Shown here one piece after another: positions 16,356 to 39,195 of a DNA stretch of 64,000 bases. This DNA comes from a virus. The notes beneath the pieces were generated by a model. It did not search any database. It saw only the letters and a list, made by a program, of their open reading frames with translations, and was not told where the DNA came from. The translations under genes and the position numbers were made by a program. The first letter of the stretch is position 1. Each line of letters starts with the position of its first letter. The stretch spans positions 124,001-188,000 of IMG/VR virus record IMGVR_UViG_3300035137_000026. One strand, 5' to 3'.

Positions 16356-19162
16356 TCGACTACTGATGGGCCGATCGCTGGATGTTGGTACTCCGGAAGG
16401 AATCTCTCGGCGTGGCCGTCATACATAGCTGGCAATCTGTCGTTGAAGGCTCTTAAGATCTCTAGAGCACAGCCTCTGATGATTGGGTGAGCTGGCTTAT
16501 CACATCTCATATTGAAAACGTGCATCCACTCTCTTAGGTTGGCGGATATAACAATCTCAGACTTAAGACCAATAGGTAACACGGATCTAGCAATCTGAGC
16601 CTTGACACCCATGTCGATAAGCTTCATGTAGTGCTGCTCACAGTGGCGCATGGCAGCTTCCCACTCGTCTTGCTGCTCGGGTGTCATACCAGGCTGCTTA
16701 ACAACTGTAATCTCAGCATCGAACTTGCCTCTGGAGTAATTACAATACCTTGTAGACTCCTGTGCAAAGCTAGCAATCCTGTGACGTACTAGCTCGTGAG
16801 TGTTTCCAGACCAAAATGCTTTGCCATTTCGTCTAACATATAGTGTCCCATTGGGGACTGTAACGCAACGAATCTTGCCCTTGTAATGTTTCTTAGACCA
16901 GTGTTTCTTATTAAATAGATGTTCGTTAGTCCTATCGGTTACAGACACAATGTACTGGATTACTTTGTTGGTGATGGTATTCCCATTCTTCATTTCTCGT
17001 GACTGGCCTCGCCTGTCGTCGGTTCTTATAGAGGCACATCGCCCACCCTTCATAAATAGCTCTTGTAGGTCCCCAGCAAATCCATAGCTAGCTGTATATA
17101 CAACAGTATGGCCGTTCTCTTTATGAATGTTACCGTCTCCAGCCACGACGCCTTCCAAGAATGCTCTAATGTAGTTTGAGTTAGCATGTTTAATCCAGGT
17201 TGGACATCTGCCAGTATATGTTTTCTTCTGGTCTCTAGGGAACCACTTTCTAAGAAACTTATATAGCTCAGTGTTGTTTATTCGAAAACCGTCAGGTTTC
17301 TCTTGAAACTTCCATCCTAATCCGCTTAGTACTTTCTTAATATATCGTCTTCCAGATTCTTTAGTCTGCGAGATAGTTACTCGTCCACCAGTGTCTTTAC
17401 TCTTCCATAATGAACCATCAGTGATCCATATACCCATAAATCTAGCAAAGTCTAGTTTGTGTATTTGTGGAAAGAGATAAGCATATGGAGAGTCTTTACG
17501 AAAGCAGTTCTCCCCTATGTCTCGGAATAGCCCTCTAAGAAATTTTACCCGCCGCCCATAGATCTCTTCTGCTCTACTAATTTTCCAATTTTTGTCTTTC
17601 CTTGAATCGTAGTGAAACCAGAACATTCTGTGATTCGGAGTAACTGCAAAGTCTACAATGGTAGACTTGCCGTAGATAAGTTCGCCATCCCAATCTTCTT
17701 CTGTATAATCTAATCTTTTCTGGTACTCTGCGCCTTCTGTCTCAGTATTCATTGTTAAAAACAAATCATCATCTGTTGTGTCTTCAAATTTCTTCCAGCC
17801 ATCATAGGTTAGGACTTCTGTCTGATCGTCATAACATAGTCCTCGGTCGGCGCTAATACGAGCTGAGGCCATTGCATGCTCAAGCATCGCATGGTGGCCC
17901 CTGTCCCTAAGCATCCTAATGAACTTAGGAGCAGACTCCTCTGTGATCTTGTCCTCTGACTTATAACAGTTTCCGATCCACATCGACTTTCCATTATCTC
18001 TGATGCAGATGATACCATTGTCAGTAGAGGGGCAATACACCTTGCCACTATACTCTTCTTCAATCAACTGGTCTGGCTTAATGATCCAAGAATCTCGTTG
18101 GGATTCTTCAGCATAATATATCCCATTACAGTTTCTCCAGTGTTCTGAATCCATGAACCCAACTGATGCGTTCTTTCCTGTTAGTATCCATAATTCCTGA
18201 ACTTGATCGACTAGGGCCTTGTTGATTGACAGATATCTTTCCGTCCTCGTTGTATTTCCAGAACCGTCACCCATATATAGAATGTCTAGAAAATAACTGA
18301 TCATTTCAGAAGATAGCTCCCTAACCAAGTTTGGTATCCTCTTATTCTCAGAATAGCGACCACAATGTTCTTCGACCCACTCTACAAAAGGTCTACCCTC
18401 CCAGATTCTAAAAGTATGGATGTGTAATCTCCTAGAATCTGGTATCACTGAGAACTGGAGACCTAGTTCGATTAAGGCTTCTTCTATCTTATAATACAGC
18501 TGTTCGTGTATACTCTGTGTAATTCCAATGTAAGATCCAGACCCTTTTGGCTTTCCGATGTGGCCTTCGGCAATGTAGGCTGCAAGAATAGTTAGGAAAT
18601 CTTGATTAACTTCATATGTCTTGCCTTTAATAGTTGTCTCATGTGATGGGTTTCTAGAGACGTATTTATAGTCATTTGTCTGAATATATTTTGTACAATT
18701 GTCTTCTCGTTGCAGTATGCTATCCTTGAAATATTTTGGAACCCACCATCCGTAATTGCGCTTATCATCTTTTAAACAACGTGCTTCCACAAAGCCATAT
18801 GGCTTAATAGTATCCTGGTGATGTGCCTTGCATGCAAACATTCTATGGTCGGGCGTTACTCTAAATTTAATATTTCTATGTCTTGAAGATAGCAAGCTCC
18901 CGCTAAAATCTTTTGCTACCATCTTTGATGGTTGGTATTGGAGCTGTTTCGTGTCACTGTTAAAGGTCAGCACTTTGTTAGTCGGCTCTATGGCTGAAGC
19001 TTCCTTCCATCCTTCGTCTGTTAGTATTTCAGTGTCCGGATGCAGGCACGTGCGCCCAACTCTCTCCAGCCACTGCTCTATAGTGGCGTATCCCTCTGGA
19101 ATGTGGAATACAATCTCATCAACCTTTGGTTCTGCTACTCTCATTTTGAACTCCATACCCAT
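16352..19162 (-). CDS. thyX: Flavin-dependent thymidylate synthase with two inteins
   Basis: 936 residues encoding a ThyX of about 231 extein residues (usual size) interrupted twice. ThyX makes dTMP from dUMP using FAD, NADPH and methylene-tetrahydrofolate. Extein 1 is residues 1-38 (to VGRT), extein 2 is 399-442 (CYKSEDKITEES to SADRGL) and extein 3 is 788-936, starting THELVRH. The ThyX signature RHR-x7-S is seen as RHRIASFAQES across the second junction. Both inteins are inserted in the most conserved active-site motifs, as inteins usually are. Start at 19162 is uncertain: a GGAG six bases before the in-frame ATG at 19144 makes that start at least as likely. The sigma-like gene is coupled downstream. 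Confidence 0.93.
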   Translation of the reverse strand: MGMEFKMRVAEPKVDEIVFHIPEGYATIEQWLERVGRTCLHPDTEILTDEGWKEASAIEPTNKVLTFNSDTKQLQYQPSKMVAKDFSGSLLSSRHRNIKFRVTPDHRMFACKAHHQDTIKPYGFVEARCLKDDKRNYGWWVPKYFKDSILQREDNCTKYIQTNDYKYVSRNPSHETTIKGKTYEVNQDFLTILAAYIAEGHIGKPKGSGSYIGITQSIHEQLYYKIEEALIELGLQFSVIPDSRRLHIHTFRIWEGRPFVEWVEEHCGRYSENKRIPNLVRELSSEMISYFLDILYMGDGSGNTTRTERYLSINKALVDQVQELWILTGKNASVGFMDSEHWRNCNGIYYAEESQRDSWIIKPDQLIEEEYSGKVYCPSTDNGIICIRDNGKSMWIGNCYKSEDKITEESAPKFIRMLRDRGHHAMLEHAMASARISADRGLCYDDQTEVLTYDGWKKFEDTTDDDLFLTMNTETEGAEYQKRLDYTEEDWDGELIYGKSTIVDFAVTPNHRMFWFHYDSRKDKNWKISRAEEIYGRRVKFLRGLFRDIGENCFRKDSPYAYLFPQIHKLDFARFMGIWITDGSLWKSKDTGGRVTISQTKESGRRYIKKVLSGLGWKFQEKPDGFRINNTELYKFLRKWFPRDQKKTYTGRCPTWIKHANSNYIRAFLEGVVAGDGNIHKENGHTVVYTASYGFAGDLQELFMKGGRCASIRTDDRRGQSREMKNGNTITNKVIQYIVSVTDRTNEHLFNKKHWSKKHYKGKIRCVTVPNGTLYVRRNGKAFWSGNTHELVRHRIASFAQESTRYCNYSRGKFDAEITVVKQPGMTPEQQDEWEAAMRHCEQHYMKLIDMGVKAQIARSVLPIGLKSEIVISANLREWMHVFNMRCDKPAHPIIRGCALEILRAFNDRLPAMYDGHAERFLPEYQHPAIGPSVVE
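16802..17836 (-). mobile_element. ThyX intein 2 (LAGLIDADG type, 345 aa)
   Basis: Residues 443-787 of the ThyX precursor. It begins with Cys in the block A pattern (CYDDQTEVLTYDGW), has a block B-like FAVTPNHRMF, two LAGLIDADG-type endonuclease motifs (FMGIWITDGSL and FLEGVVAGDGN), and ends NGKAFWSGN followed by Thr of the extein. The C-terminal Asn is kept, but the residue before it is Gly rather than the usual His. Boundaries were set by rejoining ADRGL with THELVRHR, which restores the normal ThyX motif. Splicing with +1 Thr is known for other inteins. Confidence 0.88.
17969..19048 (-). mobile_element. ThyX intein 1 (LAGLIDADG type, 360 aa)
   Basis: Residues 39-398 of the ThyX precursor. 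It starts CLHPDTEILTDEGW (block A), has block B-like FRVTPDHRMF, LAGLIDADG-type motifs LAAYIAEGHI and LDILYMGDGSG, and ends NGKSMWIGN before Cys. Removing it joins GRT to CYKSEDKI, the expected ThyX sequence. As in intein 2, the penultimate residue is Gly, not His, and the ends of the two inteins share the pattern NGK-x-x-W-x-GN, so they are probably related copies. Confidence 0.88.
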
Positions 19163-22931: not shown

Positions 22932-25400
22932 CTAAAAATCATTAGCTGCTCTGTTTTCTGCTAGGAAGGCCTTACGGTCCTTCTGATCCTGGATGGCAGT
23001 TTGTAGTTCAACAGCTCGATACTGTCCTGCATAGCCGTAGAGATCCAGGAATTCTCTGCCTTCGTATCCAGAGACCTTATTCTTACCGAACTTTACCCAG
23101 ATTCTAGGTAGTATGTCCCCATGCTTATCTTCGTGTATAAGGATAGCGCTGTCTTCATCACAATGGTGTAGATCATTGTACAAGTGAATGATTACACTGG
23201 CATCGTACTGTAGTGCCCTGGATTCTGCGATTGCCAAGTTGGTTGGCCTCTCACCAGGAGCTAACTTTCTATATTCCACTGTGGATACGATAGTAATGTG
23301 GTTGGCTACCGTCATGTTTTTCATTAGATTGCTCAACCGTTTGACTCGCTCGTGACCCTGTAACTCAGACAAGTCTGGATACTTGTGGAAGTTGTCACAG
23401 AACAGAACGACGTTCTTCTCTGGATATTTTTCTCTATACTTCCTTACCAGAGCTTCTGCGTACATTAGAGACTGTCCGTCACTAGCATCACGAATGACAA
23501 TCCTCTCGTCTCTAATTGCCTGAATAACTTTGTTGTATCCCTGCTCTCTGAGTTGTGGTACGAACTCATATCCATCCTGCATTTTCCAGTAGTTTGGACT
23601 CGAGACATGGTTCAGTCTGAGCTGAAGCGTCTCTGTAGCGCAGCAGACCATCTTGTATAGGATGAATCTGGCGGCATCATCAATGGAATGGTAAATACAG
23701 ATGGCATTGTTTCGCTCTTCGTTTGCTATCTCCCAGGCCATTTGGCTAGCGAATGTTGTCTTGCCGGCCTGCTCCGAACCACCAACAAATACTAGATTGT
23801 CTGATCTCCAGTCATCATCTAGGTGAGCAGCGATACCACCCAAGCCCCATGGCTTCATAAAGAACCCTGCGAATTCTCCACTCTTCTGCTCGTCAGCTTC
23901 CTTCTGAGCCAATACTGTGCCTAGAACTGTGTTCTCGTCGCTCTCCTGTTGTACGGCCTTGTTGATCTCACCTAACTGGTGCTGGGCCTGAATCAGGGCC
24001 ATCTCTGCCTTTTCTGGGTTCTTCTGTACTTCCCAGGTCAGGGCTTCAATGACTGCTTTCTTTTTATGTTGTATGTTTGCTTCCTTCTCGCTTCTGAGAC
24101 GCTTCACCTCAGACATGATGATCGCAATATCATGGCCTGTCATCCTGGAGACCTGCTTAGCCATCTCCTGCTGGCGGATATGACTCTTCTCAGACACGAT
24201 TATCTGAGCCATCTTTTGGGCTATCTCTGACTTCTTGTCCTCATCCAAATCTTCCTTCTCTGCCTGTTCTTCCATGAACTTGGCAAGCCTCCATTCGAAT
24301 GCTGTCCATTTCTTTAGCCGAACGAACTCATCAATGCCCCTAGCTCTCAGCAGATCGTCTGGATCTTCTCCGCTGGGTAGCTGAATAAGTTTGACCCTGA
24401 AGTCTTTCTCTTGGGCGAACTTCTCATCCAAGGCTTTTCTAACAGCCTCTTCTCCTGCGTCATCGCTATCGAAGACTAGGATGAGGTTGAACACCCCACA
24501 TCTCTTCAGTAAGTTAACGTGGTGGTCTGTGAGTGCTGTACCTAGAGTGCAGCAGCAGTTCATTAGACCATGGTGTCTAGCTGTAATGACGTCAGCTTGA
24601 CCCTCGAAGATGTACAGAGGGCTGGCTGCTGTCTTTGCTACATCAAAGCCGTAGAGACGTGATCCCTTATTGAAGATGGCGCACTCGAGCCCCGTACCTC
24701 TAGTGTTGATATACTTTGGGCCACTGGTTTGGTCACCTTTTTTGTGCTTCAAGTTTTTAGCACTGAAGCCTACTGGCCTACCCTTGTCATCATAGACTGT
24801 GAATAACAGATTGTGTTTGTCGAATAAGTTCGATCTATCCAGGTCAACTGCACTTAGGAATTTTGGCTCATAGCCAGCCTTCTTCATTGTTTCCATGAAC
24901 TCTTTGTAGTTGACTGTCCCAATCCCCCAGCTTGCAAGCTTTGATCTCTCCCAACTCCGGCGGTCAATCTCATAGTCAACCGTTGAGTAGTCCCCAAAGT
25001 TTGGATTACTAACCAGCTTGGCCGCTAGTGCATAAGCTGAGTATGTTCTGTATTCGTATATCTCTTCCGGTGTTAGATCTTCCAGCTCTACTTGAACTCC
25101 GAACTTTTCTGCGAGATACATGACGTTCTCTTCAATGAATCCTCTGCCGGATATTGGCTTGCCCTCGAGGTAGTGTGCCGCCAGGAAGATACCAGCTGAG
25201 CATCCACATGCAAAGCAGTTCGCTCTATACTGGTCTATCTCACCACGACATGACATTGATGGGTGAGTGTCATTATGGTCCGGGTGAATGCAGTTGAAAT
25301 CCTTGCTTGTGTCAATCCCATGTTCCTCAAGGTATTGTTCAAGATAGGGCTCTAGGGCCTCGCTCATTGCATCCAGGTTAACCAGTCTCTGCTTCATCAT
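22932..25400 (-). CDS. DNA primase-helicase fusion (DnaG-type primase + DnaB-like helicase)
   Basis: 822 residues starting at the ATG that overlaps the upstream stop (TAATG at 25400). N-terminal zinc-binding domain: C37, H42, C62 and C65 (CIHPDH, CFACG). TOPRIM catalytic region at about 262-337, with FEGQADVITA and LVFDSDDAGEEA carrying the acidic metal-binding residues. A helical linker (~365-500) leads to a RecA-type helicase domain with Walker A GGSEQAGKTT (540-549), and the later VVLFCDNFHK and ADHITIVSTVEY-like strands fit motifs H2 and H3. It would unwind DNA and lay primers at the phage fork, together with the phage's DnaE pieces. Organisation is like T7 gp4 in combining both activities, though its domains look DnaG/DnaB-like. 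Confidence 0.88.
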   Translation of the reverse strand: MMKQRLVNLDAMSEALEPYLEQYLEEHGIDTSKDFNCIHPDHNDTHPSMSCRGEIDQYRANCFACGCSAGIFLAAHYLEGKPISGRGFIEENVMYLAEKFGVQVELEDLTPEEIYEYRTYSAYALAAKLVSNPNFGDYSTVDYEIDRRSWERSKLASWGIGTVNYKEFMETMKKAGYEPKFLSAVDLDRSNLFDKHNLLFTVYDDKGRPVGFSAKNLKHKKGDQTSGPKYINTRGTGLECAIFNKGSRLYGFDVAKTAASPLYIFEGQADVITARHHGLMNCCCTLGTALTDHHVNLLKRCGVFNLILVFDSDDAGEEAVRKALDEKFAQEKDFRVKLIQLPSGEDPDDLLRARGIDEFVRLKKWTAFEWRLAKFMEEQAEKEDLDEDKKSEIAQKMAQIIVSEKSHIRQQEMAKQVSRMTGHDIAIIMSEVKRLRSEKEANIQHKKKAVIEALTWEVQKNPEKAEMALIQAQHQLGEINKAVQQESDENTVLGTVLAQKEADEQKSGEFAGFFMKPWGLGGIAAHLDDDWRSDNLVFVGGSEQAGKTTFASQMAWEIANEERNNAICIYHSIDDAARFILYKMVCCATETLQLRLNHVSSPNYWKMQDGYEFVPQLREQGYNKVIQAIRDERIVIRDASDGQSLMYAEALVRKYREKYPEKNVVLFCDNFHKYPDLSELQGHERVKRLSNLMKNMTVANHITIVSTVEYRKLAPGERPTNLAIAESRALQYDASVIIHLYNDLHHCDEDSAILIHEDKHGDILPRIWVKFGKNKVSGYEGREFLDLYGYAGQYRAVELQTAIQDQKDRKAFLAENRAANDF

Positions 25401-26014
25401 TATTCCATGCCCTTTTCGTCCCACCAGCGGAGTGTTTCTTTGTACTCCAGAACTATGTTGGCTGCTTCTTCCATGTTGTCTACCTCAAATGGATAGACAC
25501 CTCTAGTCTTTTCATTCCATGGCTGTTTCATCATAATCGGAATCGGCCCATCGATGTCAGCCAATACCCTGGGATCATCATCAATGATAAAATCAGCCTC
25601 TACGCATTGTTTCGAGTGTACCGAGTCCACCATAAACAGATAGTACTTCATGTTGGGGAAGTATCTCTTCAGCCATACATCTTTCTCTGGTGGGCAGCGG
25701 TCCCAGTTAAGCACTTTGGTAACAAAGCATATCTCTGCACCAGCATCGGCAAGTCTCTGGACCTGCTTAATGGCTCCTGGGAATGGCGGAATATCCTCGA
25801 AGAATCCCTTGTCACAGATTTCATCGTACAGCTCTCTGTGATCAGTATACTTTGCCTGTTGCTCTGGAGTCATCCTTTCCCAGACTAGTTGTGCTGTCTT
25901 GGGTTTGTAGGCATCGTCCTTCGTCATCTTGATACCATACAGCTCTTCAACCTTCTTAAAGGAAGTGGTTGTAAAGTCCGCAATGGTGCCATCCATATCT
26001 ACTATGACTCTCAT
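25400..26014 (-). CDS. 5'(3')-deoxyribonucleotidase-like HAD phosphatase
   Basis: 204 residues; start at 26014 has GGAGAG just upstream, whereas the longer frame would overlap the nuclease gene. The HAD motif I is at the very N-terminus (VIVDMDGTIADF, with D6 and D8 the nucleophile and acid/base), motif II in CFVTKVLNW, and a motif III-like FIIDDDPRVLAD near residue 145. This matches the NT5C family that dephosphorylates deoxynucleoside monophosphates. It may tune nucleotide pools or help host-DNA salvage. It is coupled to the primase-helicase by a TAATG overlap. Confidence 0.78.
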   Translation of the reverse strand: MRVIVDMDGTIADFTTTSFKKVEELYGIKMTKDDAYKPKTAQLVWERMTPEQQAKYTDHRELYDEICDKGFFEDIPPFPGAIKQVQRLADAGAEICFVTKVLNWDRCPPEKDVWLKRYFPNMKYYLFMVDSVHSKQCVEADFIIDDDPRVLADIDGPIPIMMKQPWNEKTRGVYPFEVDNMEEAANIVLEYKETLRWWDEKGME

Positions 26015-28836: not shown

Positions 28837-30939
28837 CTATCTCATCCTTTTCATATTTGTTGCGACAGCCAATGCTTGCTGATAGGCCGTGTGGCTAACA
28901 TCCTCACGGGGGATGAACTCTACCAGTGTGCCGTCTTGTACCGTGAGTGTAATCGGGTGAATGTGTCCAGCCTCATTGTCCTCAGTTACTAGCTCAAGAT
29001 CATTGATAATCACCTTGATGAGTGGTGGAGAATCATCACTTTCAGGTGCCGTAACCCTAACACTCCCACTAACAATATTGACTGTGTCTTCTTCGAGGCA
29101 CTTTTCTAGCTTTCTCCACTGTCGGGGGAAGATGGTTGCTTCCATTCGGCCCGACTTGTCCTCGATGTTGACTACGGCCATGTTCATGCCACTCTTGGTC
29201 CTAATCTTTCTGATTGCTGACACAACCACTGGGATATTGATTGGCATCCCATCTTCAATTCCTTCTCCCTCCTTTAGCGCAGCAACGGTGTGTCGTGCGA
29301 GTCTAGAAAGACCAGGGTACTCGTCCATAGGATGTCCCGTCAAGTAAAATCCTAGCGTCTGACGCTCGAGCGCTAGCCTGTCTTGTCTTGAACCCTCATC
29401 TATCTCATTCATCTCCGGTAGTTGTGGCTCTTCCGGAATTTTGTATGGCTTTGGTTCTTTAAGCCGTTTTGGTTCTCTTCCCTTGGGGTTCTTCTTCCAC
29501 TTCTTGATTTTCTCGTCTCTTATGCTTTGCTTTACATCAAAGTCTATCTGGCAGGCCTTCTCCTTCTCCTTGATTTTGGCTACACGTTCTACCCATTTAG
29601 GATGTTTCTCATAATACTTATACAGCTCGTCCAGGTTTTTTACCAGTTGTCCTCTGGAGAATTCTGTTATTTCTCCAAGAGCACCACATGCTGCGAGAGC
29701 TTTAACGGTCCCCTTGTTGATCTTCCGTTGGACCATCTCTTCTAGAGACTTGAATGGCCCGTTGGTGTTCCTCTCTTCCACGAGTGCATCACAAGCTTTT
29801 GGTCCTAATCCTTTGATTCCGGCCAGTCCAAATATTATCGTTCCATTGTTGATGGTGAACATTCCCTCTGAGATATTTACATCAGGTGGCTGGATTGGAA
29901 TCTCTGCCTCTCTGCAGGCATAGATATACTTCACCAGATCCTCCTGATCCTTGAAGGATGCATTTAATAAGGCGGTATAGAACTCTGTAGGGTAATGAGT
30001 TCTTAGCCATGCTGTCTGGTACGAGATAATTGAGTAGGCAACACTGTGACTGTTACAAGTCACAATACCCTGGTCTGTTACGAAGGTATGGTTTGGCGCT
30101 GCCATTTCTACATCGTACACATTCTCCTTCCCGCAGGGTTCTATGCTACGGATGGCTACAGGTTGAGTATACAAACCACGTTCTCCCATCCTAGTCCGCC
30201 CCATGGTATAGTATGCTTTCTTATGGCAGGAGACACAGTACGTTGCGAGATTATCTAGGCTGTTGTTGCTGTGGTTTCTGTCTATGTGATGTATCTCGAG
30301 ACGCTGGTGTGTATGTTGGCAGCACTTGGCTTCACATTGGTTGGCCTTCTGGGAATTTAAAGCATATGGTATCAGGTTGCTATTTGAGTGGTGCCTTGGG
30401 TCATTAGCGGAACCTTTGTTAGTAAATCTGTATGTGGTATCTTGAGGTACATGCCCTGAGTTTATGTATAGGCGATCTTTGGGCTTTAGCTCTGCAGTAG
30501 TCTTCTCTCCATTAGTGGTCGGAAACTTGTGGTTCTCAGTGACCACAATACTGCGTCCATCTTCGGTTGTAATTCGGAATACAGATCTGGTACCTGCATA
30601 TCTAATGTCTACGATTCTATTCTTCCGTAACTTGCCGTCTTGACACATAGAGAATGCCGTCCCATATCCATATCGTCTATATCTGTAAGCTAGCGACGGT
30701 TTACCAATATTTCTAGCATATTCGGGATCGTTTGCTAGTTTGTACATCTGTTCGATGGTGGCCCGAAACTTATTTCTCTTCTGATGACCGACACGATATA
30801 ATGTTTCTTGCCCGCTTATGCATTTGTTGAAACAATTAGAGGCCACCGACCCGTTATTTAGAACAAAGTTGTGATCAGCCTCAAGGCCAATGTCGAACAC
30901 TTTCTGTTGGCCGAGGCTCTTACGGCTAATAATTTTCAT
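28837..30939 (-). CDS. dnaE: DNA polymerase III alpha, C-terminal piece, with split-intein C-half and an HNH intein
   Basis: 700 residues. Residues 1-35 are a C-terminal split-intein half. Extein residues 36-39 (CFNK) follow, then a 257-residue HNH intein (40-296), then DnaE again from SHSVAYSIISYQTAW. Removing both gives CFNKSHSVAYS, the exact motif at which cyanobacterial DnaE is split. The remaining DnaE part contains a helix-hairpin-helix (IKGLGPKACDALVEE) and an OB-fold (INIPVVVSAIRKIRT) for DNA binding. It must be joined in trans with the product of 34415-37267 to form an active polymerase. Start is supported by TAGGA before ATG. The two tail-like genes at 30960-34392 lie between the two halves. 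Confidence 0.93.
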   Translation of the reverse strand: MKIISRKSLGQQKVFDIGLEADHNFVLNNGSVASNCFNKCISGQETLYRVGHQKRNKFRATIEQMYKLANDPEYARNIGKPSLAYRYRRYGYGTAFSMCQDGKLRKNRIVDIRYAGTRSVFRITTEDGRSIVVTENHKFPTTNGEKTTAELKPKDRLYINSGHVPQDTTYRFTNKGSANDPRHHSNSNLIPYALNSQKANQCEAKCCQHTHQRLEIHHIDRNHSNNSLDNLATYCVSCHKKAYYTMGRTRMGERGLYTQPVAIRSIEPCGKENVYDVEMAAPNHTFVTDQGIVTCNSHSVAYSIISYQTAWLRTHYPTEFYTALLNASFKDQEDLVKYIYACREAEIPIQPPDVNISEGMFTINNGTIIFGLAGIKGLGPKACDALVEERNTNGPFKSLEEMVQRKINKGTVKALAACGALGEITEFSRGQLVKNLDELYKYYEKHPKWVERVAKIKEKEKACQIDFDVKQSIRDEKIKKWKKNPKGREPKRLKEPKPYKIPEEPQLPEMNEIDEGSRQDRLALERQTLGFYLTGHPMDEYPGLSRLARHTVAALKEGEGIEDGMPINIPVVVSAIRKIRTKSGMNMAVVNIEDKSGRMEATIFPRQWRKLEKCLEEDTVNIVSGSVRVTAPESDDSPPLIKVIINDLELVTEDNEAGHIHPITLTVQDGTLVEFIPREDVSHTAYQQALAVATNMKRMR
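30052..30822 (-). mobile_element. DnaE HNH intein (257 aa), four residues after the trans-splice site
   Basis: Residues 40-296 of the C-terminal DnaE piece. Starts CISGQETLYRVG (block A), block B TENHKF, an HNH endonuclease with paired Cys (QCEAKCCQHTH, RLEIHHIDRNHSNN, YCVSCHKKAY), and block F YDVEMAAPNHTFV ending TCN before Ser. The penultimate residue is Cys, not His. An HNH domain inside an intein is rarer than LAGLIDADG. Boundaries come from restoring CFNK-SHSVAYS. Confidence 0.85.
30835..30939 (-). mobile_element. Split DnaE intein, C-terminal half (35 aa)
   Basis: Residues 1-35 of the C-terminal DnaE piece: MKIISRKSLGQQKVFDIG, then DHNFVLNNG, ending SVASN before Cys. This is closely similar in length and sequence pattern to the C-halves of cyanobacterial DnaE split inteins, which splice in trans. 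Its partner is at 34415-34726. Confidence 0.92.
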
Positions 30940-30959: not shown

Positions 30960-33707
30960 TCAGATGGCCCCTAGTGCCTCGCTATATATCTCAAGGTTGG
31001 CGAAAACCCCGCCTAGTTGGTCATTGCCAGACAAGAATTGACATATGTCAATTCGGTCTAGATCATCTGGTATAACAGCAGATGTGTCTTGCGCCTTGTC
31101 TGCGTCAACCATTAGTCGGACATCATCAGGTTTCCAATGTATGTATCCACGGTGTTGATTGCCGTCACAGATATTGCCATCTACCGGTAACTGCACTGAG
31201 TATGCCCCGCCAACCCGTATGTAAGTTGACAGCCTGTTACTAGCTGAAAGGTTCATGAATGTCCATATCGCATCATTGCTTGATCCACCATCGCTAAACA
31301 CAAGAAATTGCCGATAAACACTTGGGGTAAAGTCTGGCAGCATAAAGTCAAATCCACAAGTATTTCTACCTCCGCTTCCGACTCCACCAAGATTTCCATC
31401 ATCGCTCTTAAATCTTAGTTGATCCTTAGATCTCGTCTCAGCTGAAGCTCCGGTAATTATTGGTGATGTAGCATAATCATAGTTCTCACATTGTGCGTAC
31501 CAAATATAAATATCTTCTGTTACACCATCCCCTGCAAATGTGACGTCGTTATCATTTTCTGCGACAAACACACTCCAATAATGTGAAGCAGCAGTACCAG
31601 TAATTTTTAGTACCACCAAAACAAAACCATCACCCAAGTCCTCGATGTATGGCAGAGCACCATTGCCGTTTGTTCCTATAGCAACATTAGCCAAGTCGAA
31701 GTGTGCATATGCTCCTGTTATGGAGTCAACTACCTTAATCCACTCCTTGTCACCTGCTTTAAAGACTGCGCTGAATGTCCAATCGTCAGCTGTAAGCGTT
31801 ATATTTGTCCGAACGCTATGAGTATCGTTATCTACACTACAGACAACTGCATCCATTTGAATTCCTGGGCCGGGTCCATCAATGGAATCAGAGTTGATAG
31901 TACATCGTGTTTTGGTCCATACGGCATTATTAAAGTCATCGCAATACGTAAATAGATTCTGTGACTGAGGTTCTGATAGTCCTCCCTTGATGATTCTCTT
32001 CTGTGTCGGGCGGGCCACACACCGCAACGCTTCTTCTCCAGCTAGATAATATCGTCGTGGTGGAACCTTCTCTAAGGTAATCTTATCAAATTCTACGTAT
32101 CCGTCAGTACTTGCAAGTGCATATAGGAAAGGACCTCGTACAGCAGAAGCGGTATATGATACATCAAAGTACTGCCAGTCTGTGCTGGTGGTAAGATTGA
32201 AGCTAGCACTCCCAATGTTAGATACCCGAGGAGTGGTCACTCCATCGCTTCTACCGAATCCTGTTATTCTGTATCTCTCACCTGGCTCACATTGATGTAG
32301 TTGCCGTGCAAATGGGTTGGTTGTCCCATCATATGCAATTCTAAGGCACCTAGAACCATCTACTGGATCACTTTGCTTAGTGAGTACTGCATCATTCTGA
32401 GCATCCCATCTAGCAACACCGGGAAGCTCCATATCTCCATCCTCTAGATATATACGCTTTATTACGATGTTATCAAACTCTGAGTATCCAGAAGCACCCC
32501 AGTTATAAAGTCTTATATCGCCTGCGCTTGTTACGAATACCTCGTCTAACTCTTGCCACTCGTTGCTGATTGTGCCAGTCCAAATTGAGGTACCACCCCA
32601 GAGGATTCTAGGGTACCCGGAGCTGCCGTCGCCACGGGCTCTACCAGTGATACGGTATGTCTTGTTTGGTGTGAGAACCTGTTGATAGGCATACGCATTC
32701 ATTGTACCATCATAGGCTACACGTAGTACCTGTCTTACTCCATATGACTCCTTAGTCAAAATAGCATCATTCCAAGGAGTCCAGTCGGAAGTTGACTCTC
32801 TTTCCATGTCACCGTCATTAACTACATTTCCGTCCGGCTCTGCTTTGTCTACATATGCAGGATAGTTTCTGGTCTTTAGGATTGGTGCAGCAGTGCCTTT
32901 GGCTAGCTGGGGCCACTGACCCCAAAACTTTGCTGATAGTTTTGCCGCTAGATCATCTTGTACATGTGTATCAAGCCAATCTTGGCCAATCCAGGTAGCG
33001 GCATAGAGTATATCTCCATCAAATGGTTGATTAGCTACTCTTGAACCAAAGTGGAATTCATTAGCGCCATTCAGAGTGGAGTGATATGATGATACATCAA
33101 CTGCCGAACCGCTAGGTAAGCCGTTAACATATATCTGAGCATATCCATTTCTATCTACAAATACCCATGCATCGTAATACCTACCTGTAATTAGGGTGTC
33201 TGAATATATGCCTATATAGCCACTTGAGTCATGTAAGACAACACGCAGTCTATGTGATGATGTGAATGTCCATTCCCAACCAACATTGCCAGTTCTAGTT
33301 GCTAAGATAGATCGATGTGCGGAATCATCAGTACAATTGAAAATTATTCCTGATACTATATCCTCGGTCGATACCTGACCAAATGTTGCATTCCCAGCCT
33401 TATAAAAATCGCTTCCTGCTCCGGAGAAGCGTACAGAACGGTCCATTGGCCCAAGTGCTATAGATCCTTGCCGATACTCTGGCTGCGTGCCACCAGTTTG
33501 TCTAGTAAGAATTTCCCCATATTTCCAAGGAGCAAGATCAGTACTATTGGCATCTATTCCTCTATACCTGTATAGAGGAGATTTGGTTTGTCCATTGATA
33601 GTTAGAAACTCAGACAGTCGGGCTATGCCATTGATGGGCATGTCTGGCTTATCTTTGTACAGCTCAAATGTCTTGAAGGCTGATGGTCTGGAACTACGTA
33701 TGATCAT
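30960..33707 (-). CDS. Modular adhesin/tail protein with LamG-like and repeated carbohydrate-binding-like domains
   Basis: 915 residues. About 90-270 is a concanavalin/LamG-like fold (SVRFSGAGSDFYKAG, DGDILYAATWIG). Two tandem repeats follow at about 300-420 and 425-545: each starts with DGDME, continues with LTK then RVAYDGT/RIAYDGT, N-x-FAR or NAYAYQ, and YRITGRARGDG/YRITGFGRSDG, as in CBM4/9-type carbohydrate-binding modules. A third similar sandwich (~570-740) and a second LamG-like part (~745-915) end the protein. It is a likely receptor-binding or tail protein. Unusually, it is transcribed with replication genes and sits between the two halves of the split dnaE. It follows the preceding gene by one base with no clear ribosome site, so it is probably coupled. 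Confidence 0.65.
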   Translation of the reverse strand: MIIRSSRPSAFKTFELYKDKPDMPINGIARLSEFLTINGQTKSPLYRYRGIDANSTDLAPWKYGEILTRQTGGTQPEYRQGSIALGPMDRSVRFSGAGSDFYKAGNATFGQVSTEDIVSGIIFNCTDDSAHRSILATRTGNVGWEWTFTSSHRLRVVLHDSSGYIGIYSDTLITGRYYDAWVFVDRNGYAQIYVNGLPSGSAVDVSSYHSTLNGANEFHFGSRVANQPFDGDILYAATWIGQDWLDTHVQDDLAAKLSAKFWGQWPQLAKGTAAPILKTRNYPAYVDKAEPDGNVVNDGDMERESTSDWTPWNDAILTKESYGVRQVLRVAYDGTMNAYAYQQVLTPNKTYRITGRARGDGSSGYPRILWGGTSIWTGTISNEWQELDEVFVTSAGDIRLYNWGASGYSEFDNIVIKRIYLEDGDMELPGVARWDAQNDAVLTKQSDPVDGSRCLRIAYDGTTNPFARQLHQCEPGERYRITGFGRSDGVTTPRVSNIGSASFNLTTSTDWQYFDVSYTASAVRGPFLYALASTDGYVEFDKITLEKVPPRRYYLAGEEALRCVARPTQKRIIKGGLSEPQSQNLFTYCDDFNNAVWTKTRCTINSDSIDGPGPGIQMDAVVCSVDNDTHSVRTNITLTADDWTFSAVFKAGDKEWIKVVDSITGAYAHFDLANVAIGTNGNGALPYIEDLGDGFVLVVLKITGTAASHYWSVFVAENDNDVTFAGDGVTEDIYIWYAQCENYDYATSPIITGASAETRSKDQLRFKSDDGNLGGVGSGGRNTCGFDFMLPDFTPSVYRQFLVFSDGGSSNDAIWTFMNLSASNRLSTYIRVGGAYSVQLPVDGNICDGNQHRGYIHWKPDDVRLMVDADKAQDTSAVIPDDLDRIDICQFLSGNDQLGGVFANLEIYSEALGAI

Positions 33708-33708
33708 T

Positions 33709-34392
33709 TTATTCTAGAACGAAAGTGCAGCTAACAGAGAGATCTTCGGCATCATTATTTGTTCCGTTAGCATCTGTTGTGATTTCTATGTCGTCATCGA
33801 TGGAGACTGCATAATCTGTATCTATATCTACTGTGGTATGCACCCAAGATGTAGAAACGTCTCGTCCTTCGTTAGAATTGGTAGTACAAACTTGAGTTCC
33901 ACCAATAGAGACGTTAACTCTTGGTTGACTGGCTCCGGTATCTGCTGAAACTACACGATGAGATATTCTGGCTAGATATGCATTTCCTAGTCTCCACTGT
34001 ATATATGTTGCTAAGTCATTTAGGACAAGATCTGTATCGGCGGCATCGGCAAATAGGCCAGGTATATTTATATCTAGCTGCTGAACACGAGAAGTAGGAC
34101 CAAACTGGATCTCGTCATCACTGACACCCAATGGATATCCAGCTATTGTTACAGTACCACTAGAATAGTCAGTAATTATTCCGTAATACCAAGTACCGCC
34201 AGATTGGCGATAACGTATTGGACGACCGACCTTAAACTTCAGCTGATTATCTGAGTCGTCTGTGACAGTGAAGCTTGATCCGGATACTCGAGTGAACGAG
34301 TTGCCACCGAACCATGCTTCTGATATAGAGAAATCACTAACAATTTCATGATAATCCAGCTCTTTAGAAAATGGATTATACTTATAGGGCAT
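33709..34392 (-). CDS. Small tail-like structural protein
   Basis: 227 residues, strong GGAGGTGG before ATG. The N-terminus MPYKYNPFSKELDYHE matches the start pattern often seen in phage tail/fibre proteins (P-x-K-x-N-P-F-x-x-x-L-D). The rest is beta-rich, Asp/Ser/Thr-rich (SSGTVTIAGYPLG, VNVSIGGTQVC), with no catalytic motif. It is one base from the modular adhesin gene and probably works with it. Like that gene it is placed inside the split dnaE region. Confidence 0.55.
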   Translation of the reverse strand: MPYKYNPFSKELDYHEIVSDFSISEAWFGGNSFTRVSGSSFTVTDDSDNQLKFKVGRPIRYRQSGGTWYYGIITDYSSGTVTIAGYPLGVSDDEIQFGPTSRVQQLDINIPGLFADAADTDLVLNDLATYIQWRLGNAYLARISHRVVSADTGASQPRVNVSIGGTQVCTTNSNEGRDVSTSWVHTTVDIDTDYAVSIDDDIEITTDANGTNNDAEDLSVSCTFVLE

Positions 34393-34414: not shown

Positions 34415-34726
34415 TTATAGTATTTCTGCCAGTTCATGTATAGTATACAGGCTATGATTCTCTTTGTATATGGTGTCAATATCTAGCATTGTGCCATCAA
34501 TTGTAAGGAACTTATGATCCTTGGTGGCTTGAATAACAGTCCCGTCCTCGAGGGTGTATTCAAAGGTTTCCTGCTCGCCATTATCGTGCCACTGGCTGAT
34601 GGGTTGTATGGTAATAAGGCCGTTGCTGATTGAGTAGACATTACATTCCAGTTTATTACCTACAATATCCCCAATTCTCATGGGCCCAAACTCTACTGTG
34701 AGCACCTCAGTTTCGTATGTCAGACA
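34415..34726 (-). mobile_element. Split DnaE intein, N-terminal half (103 aa)
   Basis: Residues 848-950 of the middle DnaE piece. It begins CLTYETEVLTVEFG, has ISQWHDNGEQETFEY and block B ATKDHKF, and stops after EIL. The pattern follows cyanobacterial DnaE N-halves (about 102-123 residues) closely. The extein before it ends AGFAKY, the usual DnaE split point. Partner: 30835-30939. Confidence 0.92.
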
Positions 34727-37267
34727 ATATTTGGCGAAACCGGCAATATCGTCAAATAGCTTAGTAGCAATGCTCTCAGAGATACCATTTGTTATGCATC
34801 CGTTGACGAATTTCTCCCGCTCGGGCTCCATCTTCTCCCGGATCTTCTTGCCAATGATCTGCCTCATATTGTCGGCTTCGGGTAATGTATATCCAGCCAA
34901 ATCTGTACAGATCTTCATAATTTGCTCCTGGAAGCAATTATGGGAGACCACTCCATCAGCTATAAAGTACGGAAAGCTCTGGTCCTGCATCTGGATATCA
35001 TAACATTCTGCCAGTTTGGGTTCTGCTGTAAGGACGTCGAGGTCTTGTGCCTTGTATTCTACATATACTGGAAACGTATCTTGCAGGTATGAAATTCTGT
35101 ATGCTTCTTTATATACTGACAAGAAGCCTGGTATCCTCCAGACGTAGGAGTTGTTTCCCTGTGGTCTATACATCCCACTGCCATGAAGGCTACGTTGTAA
35201 CTGTTTCTTGTGAGATGGAGACTTATAGAATAGTTGCGAGCTTTTAATTAGCTGTCTTAATAGCTTTCTAGCTATAGGTGGATAATAACTATTTCCTATC
35301 CTGCACTTGTAATACTTACCGGGTAGCTTAGGAGCAATGAGGCTACAAAATGCATATCTGTCTACAATATATATGTAATTATCGGAGATACGATATGCTA
35401 TCTTCAGCGAACGCAATAAATCTCCAATGTCTAACAATAGCTTGTGAGAAACAGACCGATAGTAAATTAAGTTCTTTCCGTAGTGGCCGTCTGCGTCCCA
35501 TATTCCACGAAGTAGCTCTACCCTTGATCTTTCATTGAAGTCTCGGAACTGTGTGGGAAGTGTTTTGGTATGTGATTTACTTATCCATTGACCGACTCCA
35601 TACTGTTTATCTAGAAAATTAGTTGGTGGAGATTTTCTAGGAGCAGTATTAAATTTCGAATAAGCATACCATGCTCTTGTGTTTTGATAATATTTGGGCT
35701 CGCCGCCAAAAACTCTTGATATCTCTTCAGAAATCCATTTAGCCTGTTCCTCTGTGCTACATGTAATGGTTTTAGTCCCTGGCTTCATTTCTCCGTTTCC
35801 GATGAGAAGCCCCAATATGTAAGCCTTATCTGAAATGTCGATCAGGTTACTATTAGTTGCCCACTGACTGTATAATACAGATCCACATCGGTCGATTTGC
35901 CCAGATAATTGAGTAGATAAATTGCACTTTAGGTCTTTTGTAGCACAGTCACCATCTGTTGTAAGCCAAACGTGATCATCTGATGATTGAATTTCTTGCT
36001 TGGTAGACAAGCCTATCCGTAGTGTTCTCTTTTGGCTTTTGTATACCTTATCTACTTTTCCTGTCCATATTTTGTGCCCGTCAGTGGTTAGAATACTACT
36101 GCCCGGTTGGATTTCTTCTATCTTTTGAGTTCCGTCCTCAGTGCTAATAGTAGTCCCTGCCGGTAGGCACATTACACCATAAGTTGATTTAAGGATGGGC
36201 TCCAGTTTTCTGTCTGGGTATTTAACCTCGGCCCCATTACGACCTGCAACATACTGGTTTGTGAGTCCTGTATTGAGTGGACCTGGCCTAAAGAGTGCTG
36301 TGATGGTCGACAGGTCGTCAATCGACTCTGGGTGGATCTTGATGCATAGATCTCTAAAGCCCGATGAAGTCTCAAACTGAAATATTCCATCCAGCTTTCC
36401 CTGTTGAAATGCATTTGTAAACACCTCCTGATCGTGCTCGTTAATTGCATTAATATCTATGTCAATACCTTGATGCTTCTTAATCAGCCTAATAGCTTCC
36501 TGAATCACGGTCAGGTTCTTTAACCCAAGGAAGTCGTACTTAACCAGCCCAATATCTTCGACATCATTCATGTCGAATTGTGATGTTATCTCTCCACCCT
36601 TACCACGGAATAGTGGGATATGGGCTTGGATTTCACTATCGGAGATCACGACACCAGCAGCATGAACGCCCGCCTGTTTATTGAGGTTCTCAGCTTTCTG
36701 TGCAAATTCAACTACTTGTGGCCATTGGGTATTAAGAATATCTGGCTCAGCCTCGATAACTCGTTCGAAAGAGAGTGCCTTGCCTGCGTCATCTGGCGGT
36801 ATCATGTTGGCAAGTTTATCTCCGACACTTCGATCAAATCCAAGTACTCTAGCAAAATCCCTGAGGCTTCCACGTGGCTTGAACACAGCATAAGTCCCAA
36901 TCTGTGCAACTTTGTCAGCCCCATACTTCCCTCGGACATACTCAATCACCTCACCTCGACGTTCCTTGCAGAAATCAATGTCTAAGTCAGGGCTTGCCAT
37001 TCTTGTATAAAATACAGGAGCAGTTGGCTTGCAGTCTGTTGCTTTGATCACATAGGCTACGGCAGAGTTACAAGCATTCGTTACTTGAACTTCACTTTCT
37101 TGTAAGTATAGCAGATAATCTATCGTATTATCTTTGCCATGTTCTTTGTGAAATAATAGCCAATCTAGTTCGTCGTTGAACCACTGGATGACCGCCTCTT
37201 GTCTATCAATATCGACTTTGTCCAGTATCCGTTGTCTATAAATTTCTGTCGCTTCCGAATAAGGCAT
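34415..37267 (-). CDS. dnaE: DNA polymerase III alpha, palm/fingers piece, with LAGLIDADG intein and split-intein N-half
   Basis: 950 residues. DnaE sequence begins about residue 90 (MASPDLDIDFC), which carries the palm aspartates (D94, D96, D98). The third catalytic Asp is D245 in VKYDFLGL. A 411-residue intein (367-777) is inserted after KSTYGVM; without it the normal motif GVMCFQEQIMKI is restored. Extein 778-847 ends at FAKY and is followed by the split-intein N-half. The first ~89 residues do not look like DnaE and overlap an endonuclease gene, although AGGATACAAT before the ATG supports translation from here. Either they form an added tail after the gene was split, or this region is part of an intron and the true coding starts near residue 90. 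Confidence 0.9.
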   Translation of the reverse strand: MPYSEATEIYRQRILDKVDIDRQEAVIQWFNDELDWLLFHKEHGKDNTIDYLLYLQESEVQVTNACNSAVAYVIKATDCKPTAPVFYTRMASPDLDIDFCKERRGEVIEYVRGKYGADKVAQIGTYAVFKPRGSLRDFARVLGFDRSVGDKLANMIPPDDAGKALSFERVIEAEPDILNTQWPQVVEFAQKAENLNKQAGVHAAGVVISDSEIQAHIPLFRGKGGEITSQFDMNDVEDIGLVKYDFLGLKNLTVIQEAIRLIKKHQGIDIDINAINEHDQEVFTNAFQQGKLDGIFQFETSSGFRDLCIKIHPESIDDLSTITALFRPGPLNTGLTNQYVAGRNGAEVKYPDRKLEPILKSTYGVMCLPAGTTISTEDGTQKIEEIQPGSSILTTDGHKIWTGKVDKVYKSQKRTLRIGLSTKQEIQSSDDHVWLTTDGDCATKDLKCNLSTQLSGQIDRCGSVLYSQWATNSNLIDISDKAYILGLLIGNGEMKPGTKTITCSTEEQAKWISEEISRVFGGEPKYYQNTRAWYAYSKFNTAPRKSPPTNFLDKQYGVGQWISKSHTKTLPTQFRDFNERSRVELLRGIWDADGHYGKNLIYYRSVSHKLLLDIGDLLRSLKIAYRISDNYIYIVDRYAFCSLIAPKLPGKYYKCRIGNSYYPPIARKLLRQLIKSSQLFYKSPSHKKQLQRSLHGSGMYRPQGNNSYVWRIPGFLSVYKEAYRISYLQDTFPVYVEYKAQDLDVLTAEPKLAECYDIQMQDQSFPYFIADGVVSHNCFQEQIMKICTDLAGYTLPEADNMRQIIGKKIREKMEPEREKFVNGCITNGISESIATKLFDDIAGFAKYCLTYETEVLTVEFGPMRIGDIVGNKLECNVYSISNGLITIQPISQWHDNGEQETFEYTLEDGTVIQATKDHKFLTIDGTMLDIDTIYKENHSLYTIHELAEIL
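34937..36169 (-). mobile_element. DnaE LAGLIDADG intein (411 aa)
   Basis: Residues 367-777 of the palm piece. Starts CLPAGTTISTEDG, block B SSDDHVWL, endonuclease motifs AYILGLLIGNGEM and LLRGIWDADGHY, ends FIADGVVSHN before Cys. Has the canonical His-Asn-Cys C-terminal triad. Boundaries are set by restoring YGVM-CFQEQIMK. Confidence 0.92.
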
Positions 37268-37953
37268 ATTGTATCCTGTTGATAGATATATTTTACAAAT
37301 GAATATACTCCTGCCTTGTTGTATATCCTAATTTGCCATGTGTTGGTTCTCTTATCGTTATACCATCTTGGTCCAAATTTACTGAGAGAAATATATAAAT
37401 GCTCAAAGAACGGATTGCGGCATCCAGTAAAAGATAAATGTAAATAATTGTGCTCCTTTACTTTGTTAACAAAGACACAACCATCTCCATCAAAAATGCC
37501 CCGGATAAAGTCCGGTGTGTATTCTCCTAGGTTTACCGTGGGCCAAGATAAGACATTGCTCTTGGTGGATATTAGACCAAACAATTCTAGCTGACTTACT
37601 ATTTGGGGGTCTCTGGTCTTTATGCTATATGTTCTAGCTCCGGCTTGTGGCTGGTAGGTATACAGCTTTTTGTTTGGGGTCAGTATTTGGTGTACTTCTT
37701 GTGCTAGCTGTAGGTCTTTGGTAGTAATGTCTAATATGGGGCTACCTTTACCATGATATAGGTTTCCGTCAGCCCAAACTAATCCTAAGATATATGCAGA
37801 TATACTGTTGATATCCTCAAAAATATTATTATCAGGATTCAGTCTACTAAACCCTGAACATGATCATGAGCAATATTTTTGTTTCGGTTTCTTTGGTTTG
37901 TAGAATAGGCGATTACAAGCCTGACATCTTTGCTCTTTGTGTGTTCCTGACAT
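37165..37953 (-). pseudogene. LAGLIDADG homing endonuclease interrupting dnaE, with in-frame TGA
   Basis: Reading from the ATG at 37953, the frame encodes an N-terminal Cys cluster (RCQACNRLF, KYCS), then a TGA codon at 37864-37866, then SCSGF and two LAGLIDADG-type motifs (AYILGLVWADGNL near residue 48, FIRGIFDGDGCV near 147) to a TAG at 37165. The stop sits inside the usual YCS-x-x-C zinc element, where Arg (CGA) is expected, so a single base change would restore it. It is either a nonsense-inactivated gene or begins after the TGA from a non-ATG codon. It lies exactly between the DnaE PHP piece and palm piece, so it marks the insertion that split the gene, as free-standing endonucleases do in some T4-like phage nrd and polymerase genes. 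Confidence 0.7.
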
Positions 37954-37965
37954 GCTCGAAGTATA

Positions 37966-39195
37966 TTATGGCTTGTAAAACTTGTCAAACTCTGCTTTTG
38001 GAAGTTCTTCGAAGTCAATAATTGGCCTTTGTGCTCGCCCCACCCCTAAAAATCTCTCAAAGTATAGCCCGTATTTGATGGGATCAACATTCGTGATACC
38101 CACACAATAGCAGACTAATGAGCCCGCACCCGACCCTCGGCCTGGGCCTACGGGAATTCCCTGTAATTTTGCCCAGTTGATAAAGTCTGCCACCACTAAG
38201 AAGTAGGTTGGGAATCCCATCTGGTCTATCATATCAAGCTCATAGGCTAACCTTTCTTGGTATTCTGTTGTGCCATCGCCGAATAATTCTGCAAATCCTT
38301 CTTTAGCAAGCTCACTAAGAACCTCGCTTGCTGTTTTGCCGTCTGGTAGTTCGAATATCGGCCAGATGGTTTGATCATACTTCCAGGTACAATTGCATTT
38401 GTCAGCAATTTCTTGAGTAATATTGAGGGCGTGGTGCTCCTTCTCCTCAAACATTTCTTCCATCTCTTCTCTAGACTTGAAGTACAGCTGGTCCGTGTCA
38501 AACTCGAGGTCTCCTGCTGCCAGCTTACAGATGGCATTATGTAGCTCCCAGTCAGCACTCTCCTGGTAGTGGGAGTCTTGGGTAGCTACTATGGGAACAT
38601 CGAACATGCCTGAGATCTCAAACAGGGTCTCCTTAAGCTCATCCTCCCAGTCGTAGCCATGGTTCTGTACTTCAATGTAGAAGTCATCACCAAACATGTC
38701 GACCATCTCTCGAATGTGCATCTTGGCCTCGGTTATACGCCCGTCCAGAAGGAACTGGCTTAGCCTACCAGCTGGACATCCAGACAACACAACAATACCC
38801 TCCTTGTGTGCCTCAAGTACCTCACTGTCAATTCTTGGCTTATAGTAGAAACCATCCATCCAGCCAATGGATGTCAGTCTGAATATGTTCCTAAGACCAG
38901 CCTCATTCTTGGCTAGCATGGTAAGATGGTAGGATGTCTTTCTGTGGTTGTCTAACTTATTCTTTGTAAACCTGGACTCGGGAGCTACATATGCTTCGAA
39001 TCCGTATATTGGCTTGACCTCTGCCTTCTCACACTCCTTCTTGAACTTAAGCATACCGCCACAGCGACCGTGGTCGGTGAGGGCTACGGCATTCATGCCT
39101 AGCTTGGCAGCTTTGGTGGCGATTTGCTTACAGCTCTGGGCTCCATCTTGGGGTGAGTAATCACTGTGAGTATGTAGGTGTATGAAATTCTTCAT
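37966..39195 (-). CDS. dnaE: DNA polymerase III alpha, N-terminal PHP piece
   Basis: 409 residues, AGAGGATAAG before ATG. The PHP domain is complete at the start: HLHTHSDYSPQDG (H6, H8, H10, D12), LTDHGRCGG, and the later GFEAYVAPES. The palm begins with GIPVGPGRGSGAGSLVCY and continues to YFERFL, after which conserved DnaE sequence stops at about residue 383 and a 26-residue non-DnaE tail (GVGRAQRPIIDFEELPKAEF) follows. In intact DnaE the next residues are the PD-x-DID palm motif, which here begins the next protein piece. Together the three pieces give about 1140 extein residues, normal for DnaE. Function in trans with the other pieces is presumed. Confidence 0.9.
   Translation of the reverse strand: MKNFIHLHTHSDYSPQDGAQSCKQIATKAAKLGMNAVALTDHGRCGGMLKFKKECEKAEVKPIYGFEAYVAPESRFTKNKLDNHRKTSYHLTMLAKNEAGLRNIFRLTSIGWMDGFYYKPRIDSEVLEAHKEGIVVLSGCPAGRLSQFLLDGRITEAKMHIREMVDMFGDDFYIEVQNHGYDWEDELKETLFEISGMFDVPIVATQDSHYQESADWELHNAICKLAAGDLEFDTDQLYFKSREEMEEMFEEKEHHALNITQEIADKCNCTWKYDQTIWPIFELPDGKTASEVLSELAKEGFAELFGDGTTEYQERLAYELDMIDQMGFPTYFLVVADFINWAKLQGIPVGPGRGSGAGSLVCYCVGITNVDPIKYGLYFERFLGVGRAQRPIIDFEELPKAEFDKFYKP

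What the first reader, a model, noticed from the sequence alone, without database searches (positions are those of the whole stretch)
30052..30834. A second intein of HNH type only four residues after the trans-splice junction
After the C-half of the split intein comes CFNK, then a complete 257-residue intein with an HNH domain, then SHSVAYS. Two inteins flank a four-residue extein. Order of splicing could matter, because the +1 Cys needed for trans-splicing is within four residues of the other splice site. HNH inteins are less common than LAGLIDADG ones, and the Cys before the final Asn replaces the usual His.
Basis: partly seen in the sequence, partly recalled or inferred. Interest (0 to 1): 0.72.

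Follow-up and report, generated by a model that had tools for sequence, protein, structure and literature searches.

The report
HNH intein beside a split intein
In an uncultivated phage, a self-splicing protein element of a family common in phage DNA polymerases sits only four amino acids after the point where the polymerase is stitched together from two separate polypeptides, an arrangement found in no other searched virus and one that makes interference between two neighbouring protein-splicing reactions directly testable.

Summary
On the minus strand, the 700-residue C-terminal DnaE piece (28837-30939) reads: 35-residue split-intein C-half, CFNK, a complete 257-residue intein with an HNH endonuclease domain (30052-30822), then SHSVAYS. 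The matching N-half ends the DnaE middle piece (34415-37267).

The HNH intein alone is ordinary: 48 distinct members of its family occupy the same DnaE site (FN[K/A/R/H]^SH, two of them offset by one codon) in viral contigs. Penultimate Cys is their commonest state (24 Cys, 19 Ser, 4 His, 1 Tyr), so it is a family trait, not a local substitution.

The split intein alone is also not unique: 20 viral contigs carry the same C-half with CFNK joined directly to [A/S]H, an empty HNH site. One, L040, is a syntenic sister.

What is unusual is the combination, found only here, including in a direct scan of 2.9 million viral contigs for the junction. Intein and extein trees conflict, so the HNH intein most likely invaded an already split gene laterally.

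Most likely it cis-splices first, giving IntC-CFNKSHSVAYS, and normal trans-splicing follows; either order yields the same product. Splicing, homing and ordering were not shown. New variant of a known kind.

The parts
30835..30939 (-). C-half (IntC, 35 aa) of the DnaE split intein, start of the 700-aa DnaE C-terminal piece
   Evidence: 67% identity to Npu IntC; PDB matches to DnaE inteins; 20 viral contigs carry homologous IntC-CFNK
30823..30834 (-). Four-residue extein CFNK; its Cys is the +1 nucleophile for trans-splicing and its Lys the -1 residue of the HNH intein
   Evidence: translation; contiguous with [A/S]H in intein-free alleles
30052..30822 (-). Complete 257-aa HNH intein (C1 ... 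C256-N257), inserted FNK^SHS
   Evidence: family alignments A1 and A4; TIGR01445 intein_Nterm above cut-off; AlphaFold model and Foldseek matches to inteins
30454..30822 (-). N-terminal splicing part of the HNH intein (residues 1-123): C1, block B T95-x-x-H98, and a family-specific helical insertion at about residues 22-51
30208..30336 (-). HNH domain (about residues 163-205): C163/C167 or C168, H178-H179, N-rich loop, C196-x-x-C199-H200
   Evidence: PHROG HNH families E 3e-6; Pfam HNH weak, below cut-off; residues listed
30052..30174 (-). C-terminal splicing part of the HNH intein (residues 217-257): block F D237 and H245, block G C256-N257; +1 residue is Ser
28837..30051 (-). C-extein: DnaE C-terminal part (SHSVAYS..., helix-hairpin-helix, OB fold)
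   Evidence: Pfam HHH_6 3.7e-21, tRNA_anti-codon 8.6e-9; NCBIfam PRK07373.1 1.5e-81
34415..34726 (-). N-half (IntN, 103 aa plus stop) of the split intein, end of the DnaE middle piece
   Evidence: 57% identity to Npu IntN; PDB E 6e-35
34415..37267 (-). DnaE middle piece (P0002, 950 aa) carrying a LAGLIDADG intein (34937-36169) and IntN
30960..34392 (-). Two ORFs between the split DnaE halves (227 aa unknown; 915 aa tail-like, CBM_4_9); L040 has one LamG-like ORF at the same place

Best explanation
A mobile HNH intein of a family common in phage DnaE genes moved laterally into a phage dnaE that was already split by a cyanobacterial-type DnaE split intein, landing four codons after the trans-splice site because both elements target the same conserved YxFNKSH motif. 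It works as a class 1 intein: C1 attacks the K39-C40 bond, Ser+1 takes over the chain, and N257 cyclises with help from block F H245, because the penultimate residue is Cys. Most likely the HNH intein folds and splices out of the C-terminal polypeptide on its own, leaving IntC-CFNKSHSVAYS; IntC then pairs with IntN and trans-splicing joins ...FAKY to CFNKSHSVAYS. The reverse order would give the same product. Shown: anatomy, exact boundaries, empty alleles, conserved catalytic residues, predicted fold, tree conflict. Inferred: splicing, order and endonuclease activity.
For: Exact empty alleles with the split intein present: L033-L052, 20 contigs, including the syntenic sister L040 with the same gene order. 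48 distinct family members at the same site in other viral dnaE genes. Catalytic positions C1, T95, H98, D237, H245, N257 are invariant in ten aligned members and +1 is Ser. AlphaFold mean pLDDT 82, splicing core above 90; Foldseek best matches are Ssp DnaB, Mtu RecA, Npu DnaB and DnaE inteins, E 1e-8 to 1e-6. Intein tree: window inside an 11-member clade (99/97) of phage inteins. Extein tree: window sister to split-only L040 (99/98), and grouping the window with the main HNH-clade exteins is rejected, p-AU 4.5e-5. Identity to L003: intein 50%, extein 32%. A cyanophage intein with an HNH_3 domain has been shown to excise in E. coli (PMC6293099).
Against: No protein data. The direction (split first, HNH second) rests on a tree with several long branches and on parsimony. 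No close allele of the window with an empty HNH site was found, so recent activity cannot be dated. The Pfam HNH model matches only below its cut-off.
Confidence: 0.82

Rival explanations
1. The two splicing reactions are coupled: the HNH intein must leave before IntN can assemble on IntC (or the reverse), so the adjacency regulates when active polymerase forms.
For: The two splice sites are separated by four residues, and in known inteins both extein junctions meet at one active site (established knowledge), so two assembled splicing domains would crowd each other. M. smegmatis DnaB shows that two inteins in one protein can splice at very different rates and respond to stress differently (PMC6195587 abstract).
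Against: Nothing computed here tests it. Both orders give the same product. The arrangement occurs once among 21 split alleles, so it is not a conserved regulatory feature.
Confidence: 0.15
2. The HNH intein no longer splices and stays in the polymerase.
For: Penultimate Cys instead of His; no expression data.
Against: Open frame, all class 1 catalytic residues and the +1 Ser kept. Cys or Ser is the commonest penultimate state in the family (43 of 48). It interrupts the conserved FNKSHS motif of a replicative polymerase, so retention should be lethal to its function.
Confidence: 0.05
3. Assembly or annotation artefact that juxtaposes two unrelated alleles.
For: The record is an uncultivated viral assembly and the junction was found only once.
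Against: Reading frame continuous through both junctions; GC of the intein (44.9%) matches its flanks (42.7 and 46.5%); synteny with L040 on both sides; the intein is only 58% identical to its nearest relative, so it is not a chimera with a sampled allele.
Confidence: 0.03

Closest known systems
Cyanobacterial DnaE split intein (Npu, Ssp DnaE)
   Same: Same insertion site Y^CFNK, homologous IntN (57%) and IntC (67% to Npu), a short IntC starting its own gene.
   Different: Phage-encoded; the halves lie about 3.5 kb apart on the same strand with tail-like genes between; a second intein follows after four residues.
Phage DnaE HNH inteins at FN[K/A/R/H]^SH (family defined here from IMG/VR)
   Same: Same site, same architecture with a helical insertion after block A, Cys or Ser before the final Asn, Ser+1.
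   Different: None of the 48 others has a split-intein C-half upstream.
Phage DnaE split-intein alleles L033-L052
   Same: IntC-CFNK followed by the same extein; L040 shares gene order.
   Different: HNH site empty; most have Ala where this intein would need a +1 nucleophile.
Neighbouring inteins MCM-a and MCM-d of haloarchaea
   Same: Two inteins close together in one replication gene (PMC10643990).
   Different: Both are continuous LAGLIDADG inteins and further apart; here one is split and acts in trans.
Cyanophage CL131 dCTP deaminase intein
   Same: Phage intein with an HNH_3 domain; splicing shown in E. coli (PMC6293099).
   Different: Different host protein, single intein.

Membership tests
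Class 1 intein | Cys or Ser at position 1 | tested here: met
   C1, invariant in 10 family members
Class 1 intein | Block B T-x-x-H | tested here: met
   T95 and H98
Class 1 intein | C-terminal Asn followed by Cys, Ser or Thr | tested here: met
   N257, then Ser
Class 1 intein | Penultimate His (usual, not obligatory) | tested here: not met
   Cys256; usual in this family. Known inteins without it splice (PMC5050341), so it is not treated as defining
Class 1 intein | Intein fold | tested here: met
   AlphaFold pLDDT 82 and Foldseek matches to solved inteins
Class 1 intein | Precise in-frame insertion with empty alleles | tested here: met
   L033-L052
Class 1 intein | Protein splicing | not testable with these tools
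   needs expression
HNH homing endonuclease | HNH motif with zinc cysteines | tested here: met
   C163/C167-8, HH178-179, N-rich loop, C196xxC199H200; PHROG HNH families 3e-6; Pfam below cut-off
HNH homing endonuclease | Lateral mobility | tested here: met
   intein and extein trees conflict, p-AU 4.5e-5
HNH homing endonuclease | Site-specific DNA cleavage | not testable with these tools
   needs assay
DnaE split intein | IntN ending one gene and IntC starting another, at Y^CFNK | tested here: met
DnaE split intein | Trans-splicing | not testable with these tools
   needs expression of both halves

The most novel reading that the evidence does not exclude
The adjacency couples the two reactions. 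The trans-splicing nucleophile and the HNH intein's first residue form a CFNKC (CxxxC) pair; a disulfide between them, or steric exclusion of one splicing domain by the other, would hold both reactions and make polymerase assembly conditional. Any coupling of this kind would be a natural two-step control on assembling a replicative polymerase from two genes.
Probability: 0.12. Interest if true: 0.78.

Novelty: new variant of a known kind. Interest (0 to 1): 0.5.

Why it matters
Each element belongs to a known kind, but the pair gives a natural construct in which a cis-splicing and a trans-splicing intein share a four-residue extein. It makes testable whether adjacent inteins interfere at the protein level, which the published work on neighbouring inteins that I could read addressed for homing, not splicing (PMC10643990). 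It also shows that a mobile HNH intein can settle in a gene already split by another intein with only 12 bp of native upstream sequence left beside its site, which constrains what its endonuclease can require. The CFNK extein could interest protein engineers who want two orthogonal splicing events close together.

Tried and rejected
Group I or II intron in the region: no Rfam match at E <= 1. Looking for the window's DnaE C-extein directly in viral contigs with a single sequence found nothing; the IntC and profile scans worked. IntN as single sequence and as a three-row alignment found no convincing viral relative (L021 is not DnaE), although tblastn within the IntC loci then found divergent IntN. 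No isolate phage in INPHARED carries this IntN; IntC hits there are weak and mostly UvsX-type; no plasmid hit. The direct junction scan N-CFNK-C-x-x-G returned 15 stretches, all short unrelated reading frames. An alignment of IntC rows with the full C-piece placed IntC against the HNH intein's own C-terminus, so it was not used for folding. Dassa 2009 and Caspi 2003 are not held.

Full report
1. Observation. The window is bases 124001-188000 of a 197,730-base virus record. ORF 28837-30939(-) encodes 700 aa: residues 1-35 MKIISRKSLGQQKVFDIGLEADHNFVLNNGSVASN, 36-39 CFNK, 40-296 the 257-aa intein, 297 onward SHSVAYS and the DnaE C-terminal domains. The partner ORF 34415-37267(-) contains DnaE NTPase and finger parts, a LAGLIDADG intein, and ends FAKY + a 103-aa IntN. 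IntN and IntC match solved DnaE inteins and are 57% and 67% identical to Npu sequences that I entered from memory.

2. What the HNH intein is. It has C1, T95/H98, D237/H245, N257 and Ser+1; these intein positions are invariant among ten members. The HNH part has two cysteine pairs, HH178-179 and H200; PHROG HNH families match at about 3e-6, Pfam HNH only below its cut-off. AlphaFold gives mean pLDDT 82 with a core above 90 and a disordered 128-158. Foldseek's best PDB matches are inteins.

3. How common it is. A profile scan of viral contigs returned 71 loci, of which 55 parse as an intein at the DnaE motif, giving 48 distinct sequences: 36 with the HNH motif and a dozen mini-inteins of 138-186 aa. 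In 46 of 48 the downstream extein begins SH; in two it begins C-S or S-S because the cut is one codon earlier. The penultimate residue is Cys 24, Ser 19, His 4, Tyr 1. Four loci in bacterial and archaeal assemblies carry relatives at or within one codon of this site. L018 and L020 carry the same family at Y^CFNK, which is the split-intein site itself. So one intein family has entered this conserved motif at several neighbouring codons.

4. How common the split allele is. The IntC profile scan returned 31 loci: 20 are DnaE IntC-CFNK followed directly by AH or SH (L033-L052), and 11 are a different split intein. Most of the 20 have Ala at the position where the HNH intein would need its nucleophile; L040, L042/L043, L051 and L052 have Ser. 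L040 has the same gene order as the window: DnaE-N with IntN, a LamG-like ORF, IntC-DnaE-C, an RNase H-like exonuclease, and further genes to a primase-helicase. It lacks both the HNH intein and the LAGLIDADG intein of P0002.

5. History. In the intein tree the window lies in an 11-member clade (99/97) with viral inteins whose hosts are not split. In the extein tree it is sister to L040 (99/98). Holding the window together with eight exteins of that HNH group costs 49 log-likelihood units, p-AU 4.5e-5; a first version that included L078 gave p-AU 1.8e-7 but L078 is itself displaced, so the second test is the one to cite. I named the groups after seeing the intein tree, not before, and several branches are long. 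The simplest reading is one gain of the HNH intein in an already split gene.

6. Uniqueness. A scan of the viral collection for N-C-F-N-K-C-x-x-G gave 15 stretches, none in a DnaE frame. The collection tools warn that records very near the window may be left out. Metagenome contigs and cyanobacterial genomes were not searched for the pair.

7. Mechanism. Class 1 splicing of the HNH intein is inferred from residues and fold. Loss of the penultimate His is known in phage inteins, and a block F His can serve (PMC5050341). That free IntC is largely unfolded before it meets IntN is established knowledge for Npu DnaE, recalled rather than tested; with it, HNH-first is the more likely order. Both orders give the same mature sequence. 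Coupling, by crowding or by a CFNKC disulfide, is possible and untested.

8. Verdict. Observation confirmed; interpretation partly supported. New variant of a known kind: two known elements in an arrangement not seen elsewhere in what I could search.

Noticed in passing
37966-39195 and 34415-37267 (-): DnaE is broken a second time: the first piece ends just after YFERFL and the second restarts with about 50 aa that realign to the same region, with GPGRGS-like residues replaced by VTNACNS. L035, L045, L051 and L052 show a similar 600-760 bp gap; L040 is unbroken.
   Followed up: partly
37268-37965 (-): Between those two DnaE pieces lies a LAGLIDADG-like reading frame with an in-frame stop.
   Followed up: no
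34937-36169 (-): LAGLIDADG intein in the DnaE middle piece (before CFQEQ), absent in L040, so this polymerase carries three different splicing elements.
   Followed up: partly
45394-48864 (-): Class II ribonucleotide reductase with a LAGLIDADG intein.
   Followed up: no
16352-19162 (-): Thymidylate synthase ORF of 936 aa with a LAGLIDADG match.
   Followed up: no
L018 6001-6837: Same HNH intein family inserted at Y^CFNK, the split-intein site itself.
   Followed up: partly
L008 4001-4774: Gordonia phage Wojtek DnaE intein against LuckyLeo's intein-free allele sits at SYSF^NIAH, leaving Asn at +1, which class 1 splicing should not allow.
   Followed up: partly
L053-L063: A different IntC-like segment fused to what looks like a UvsX/RecA C-terminal half; similar weak hits in T4-like isolates lie beside homing endonucleases.
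   Followed up: no
L040 8839-12558: Sister phage has an intein in the Walker A motif of its primase-helicase; the window's homologue at 22932-25424 appears intein-free.
   Followed up: no
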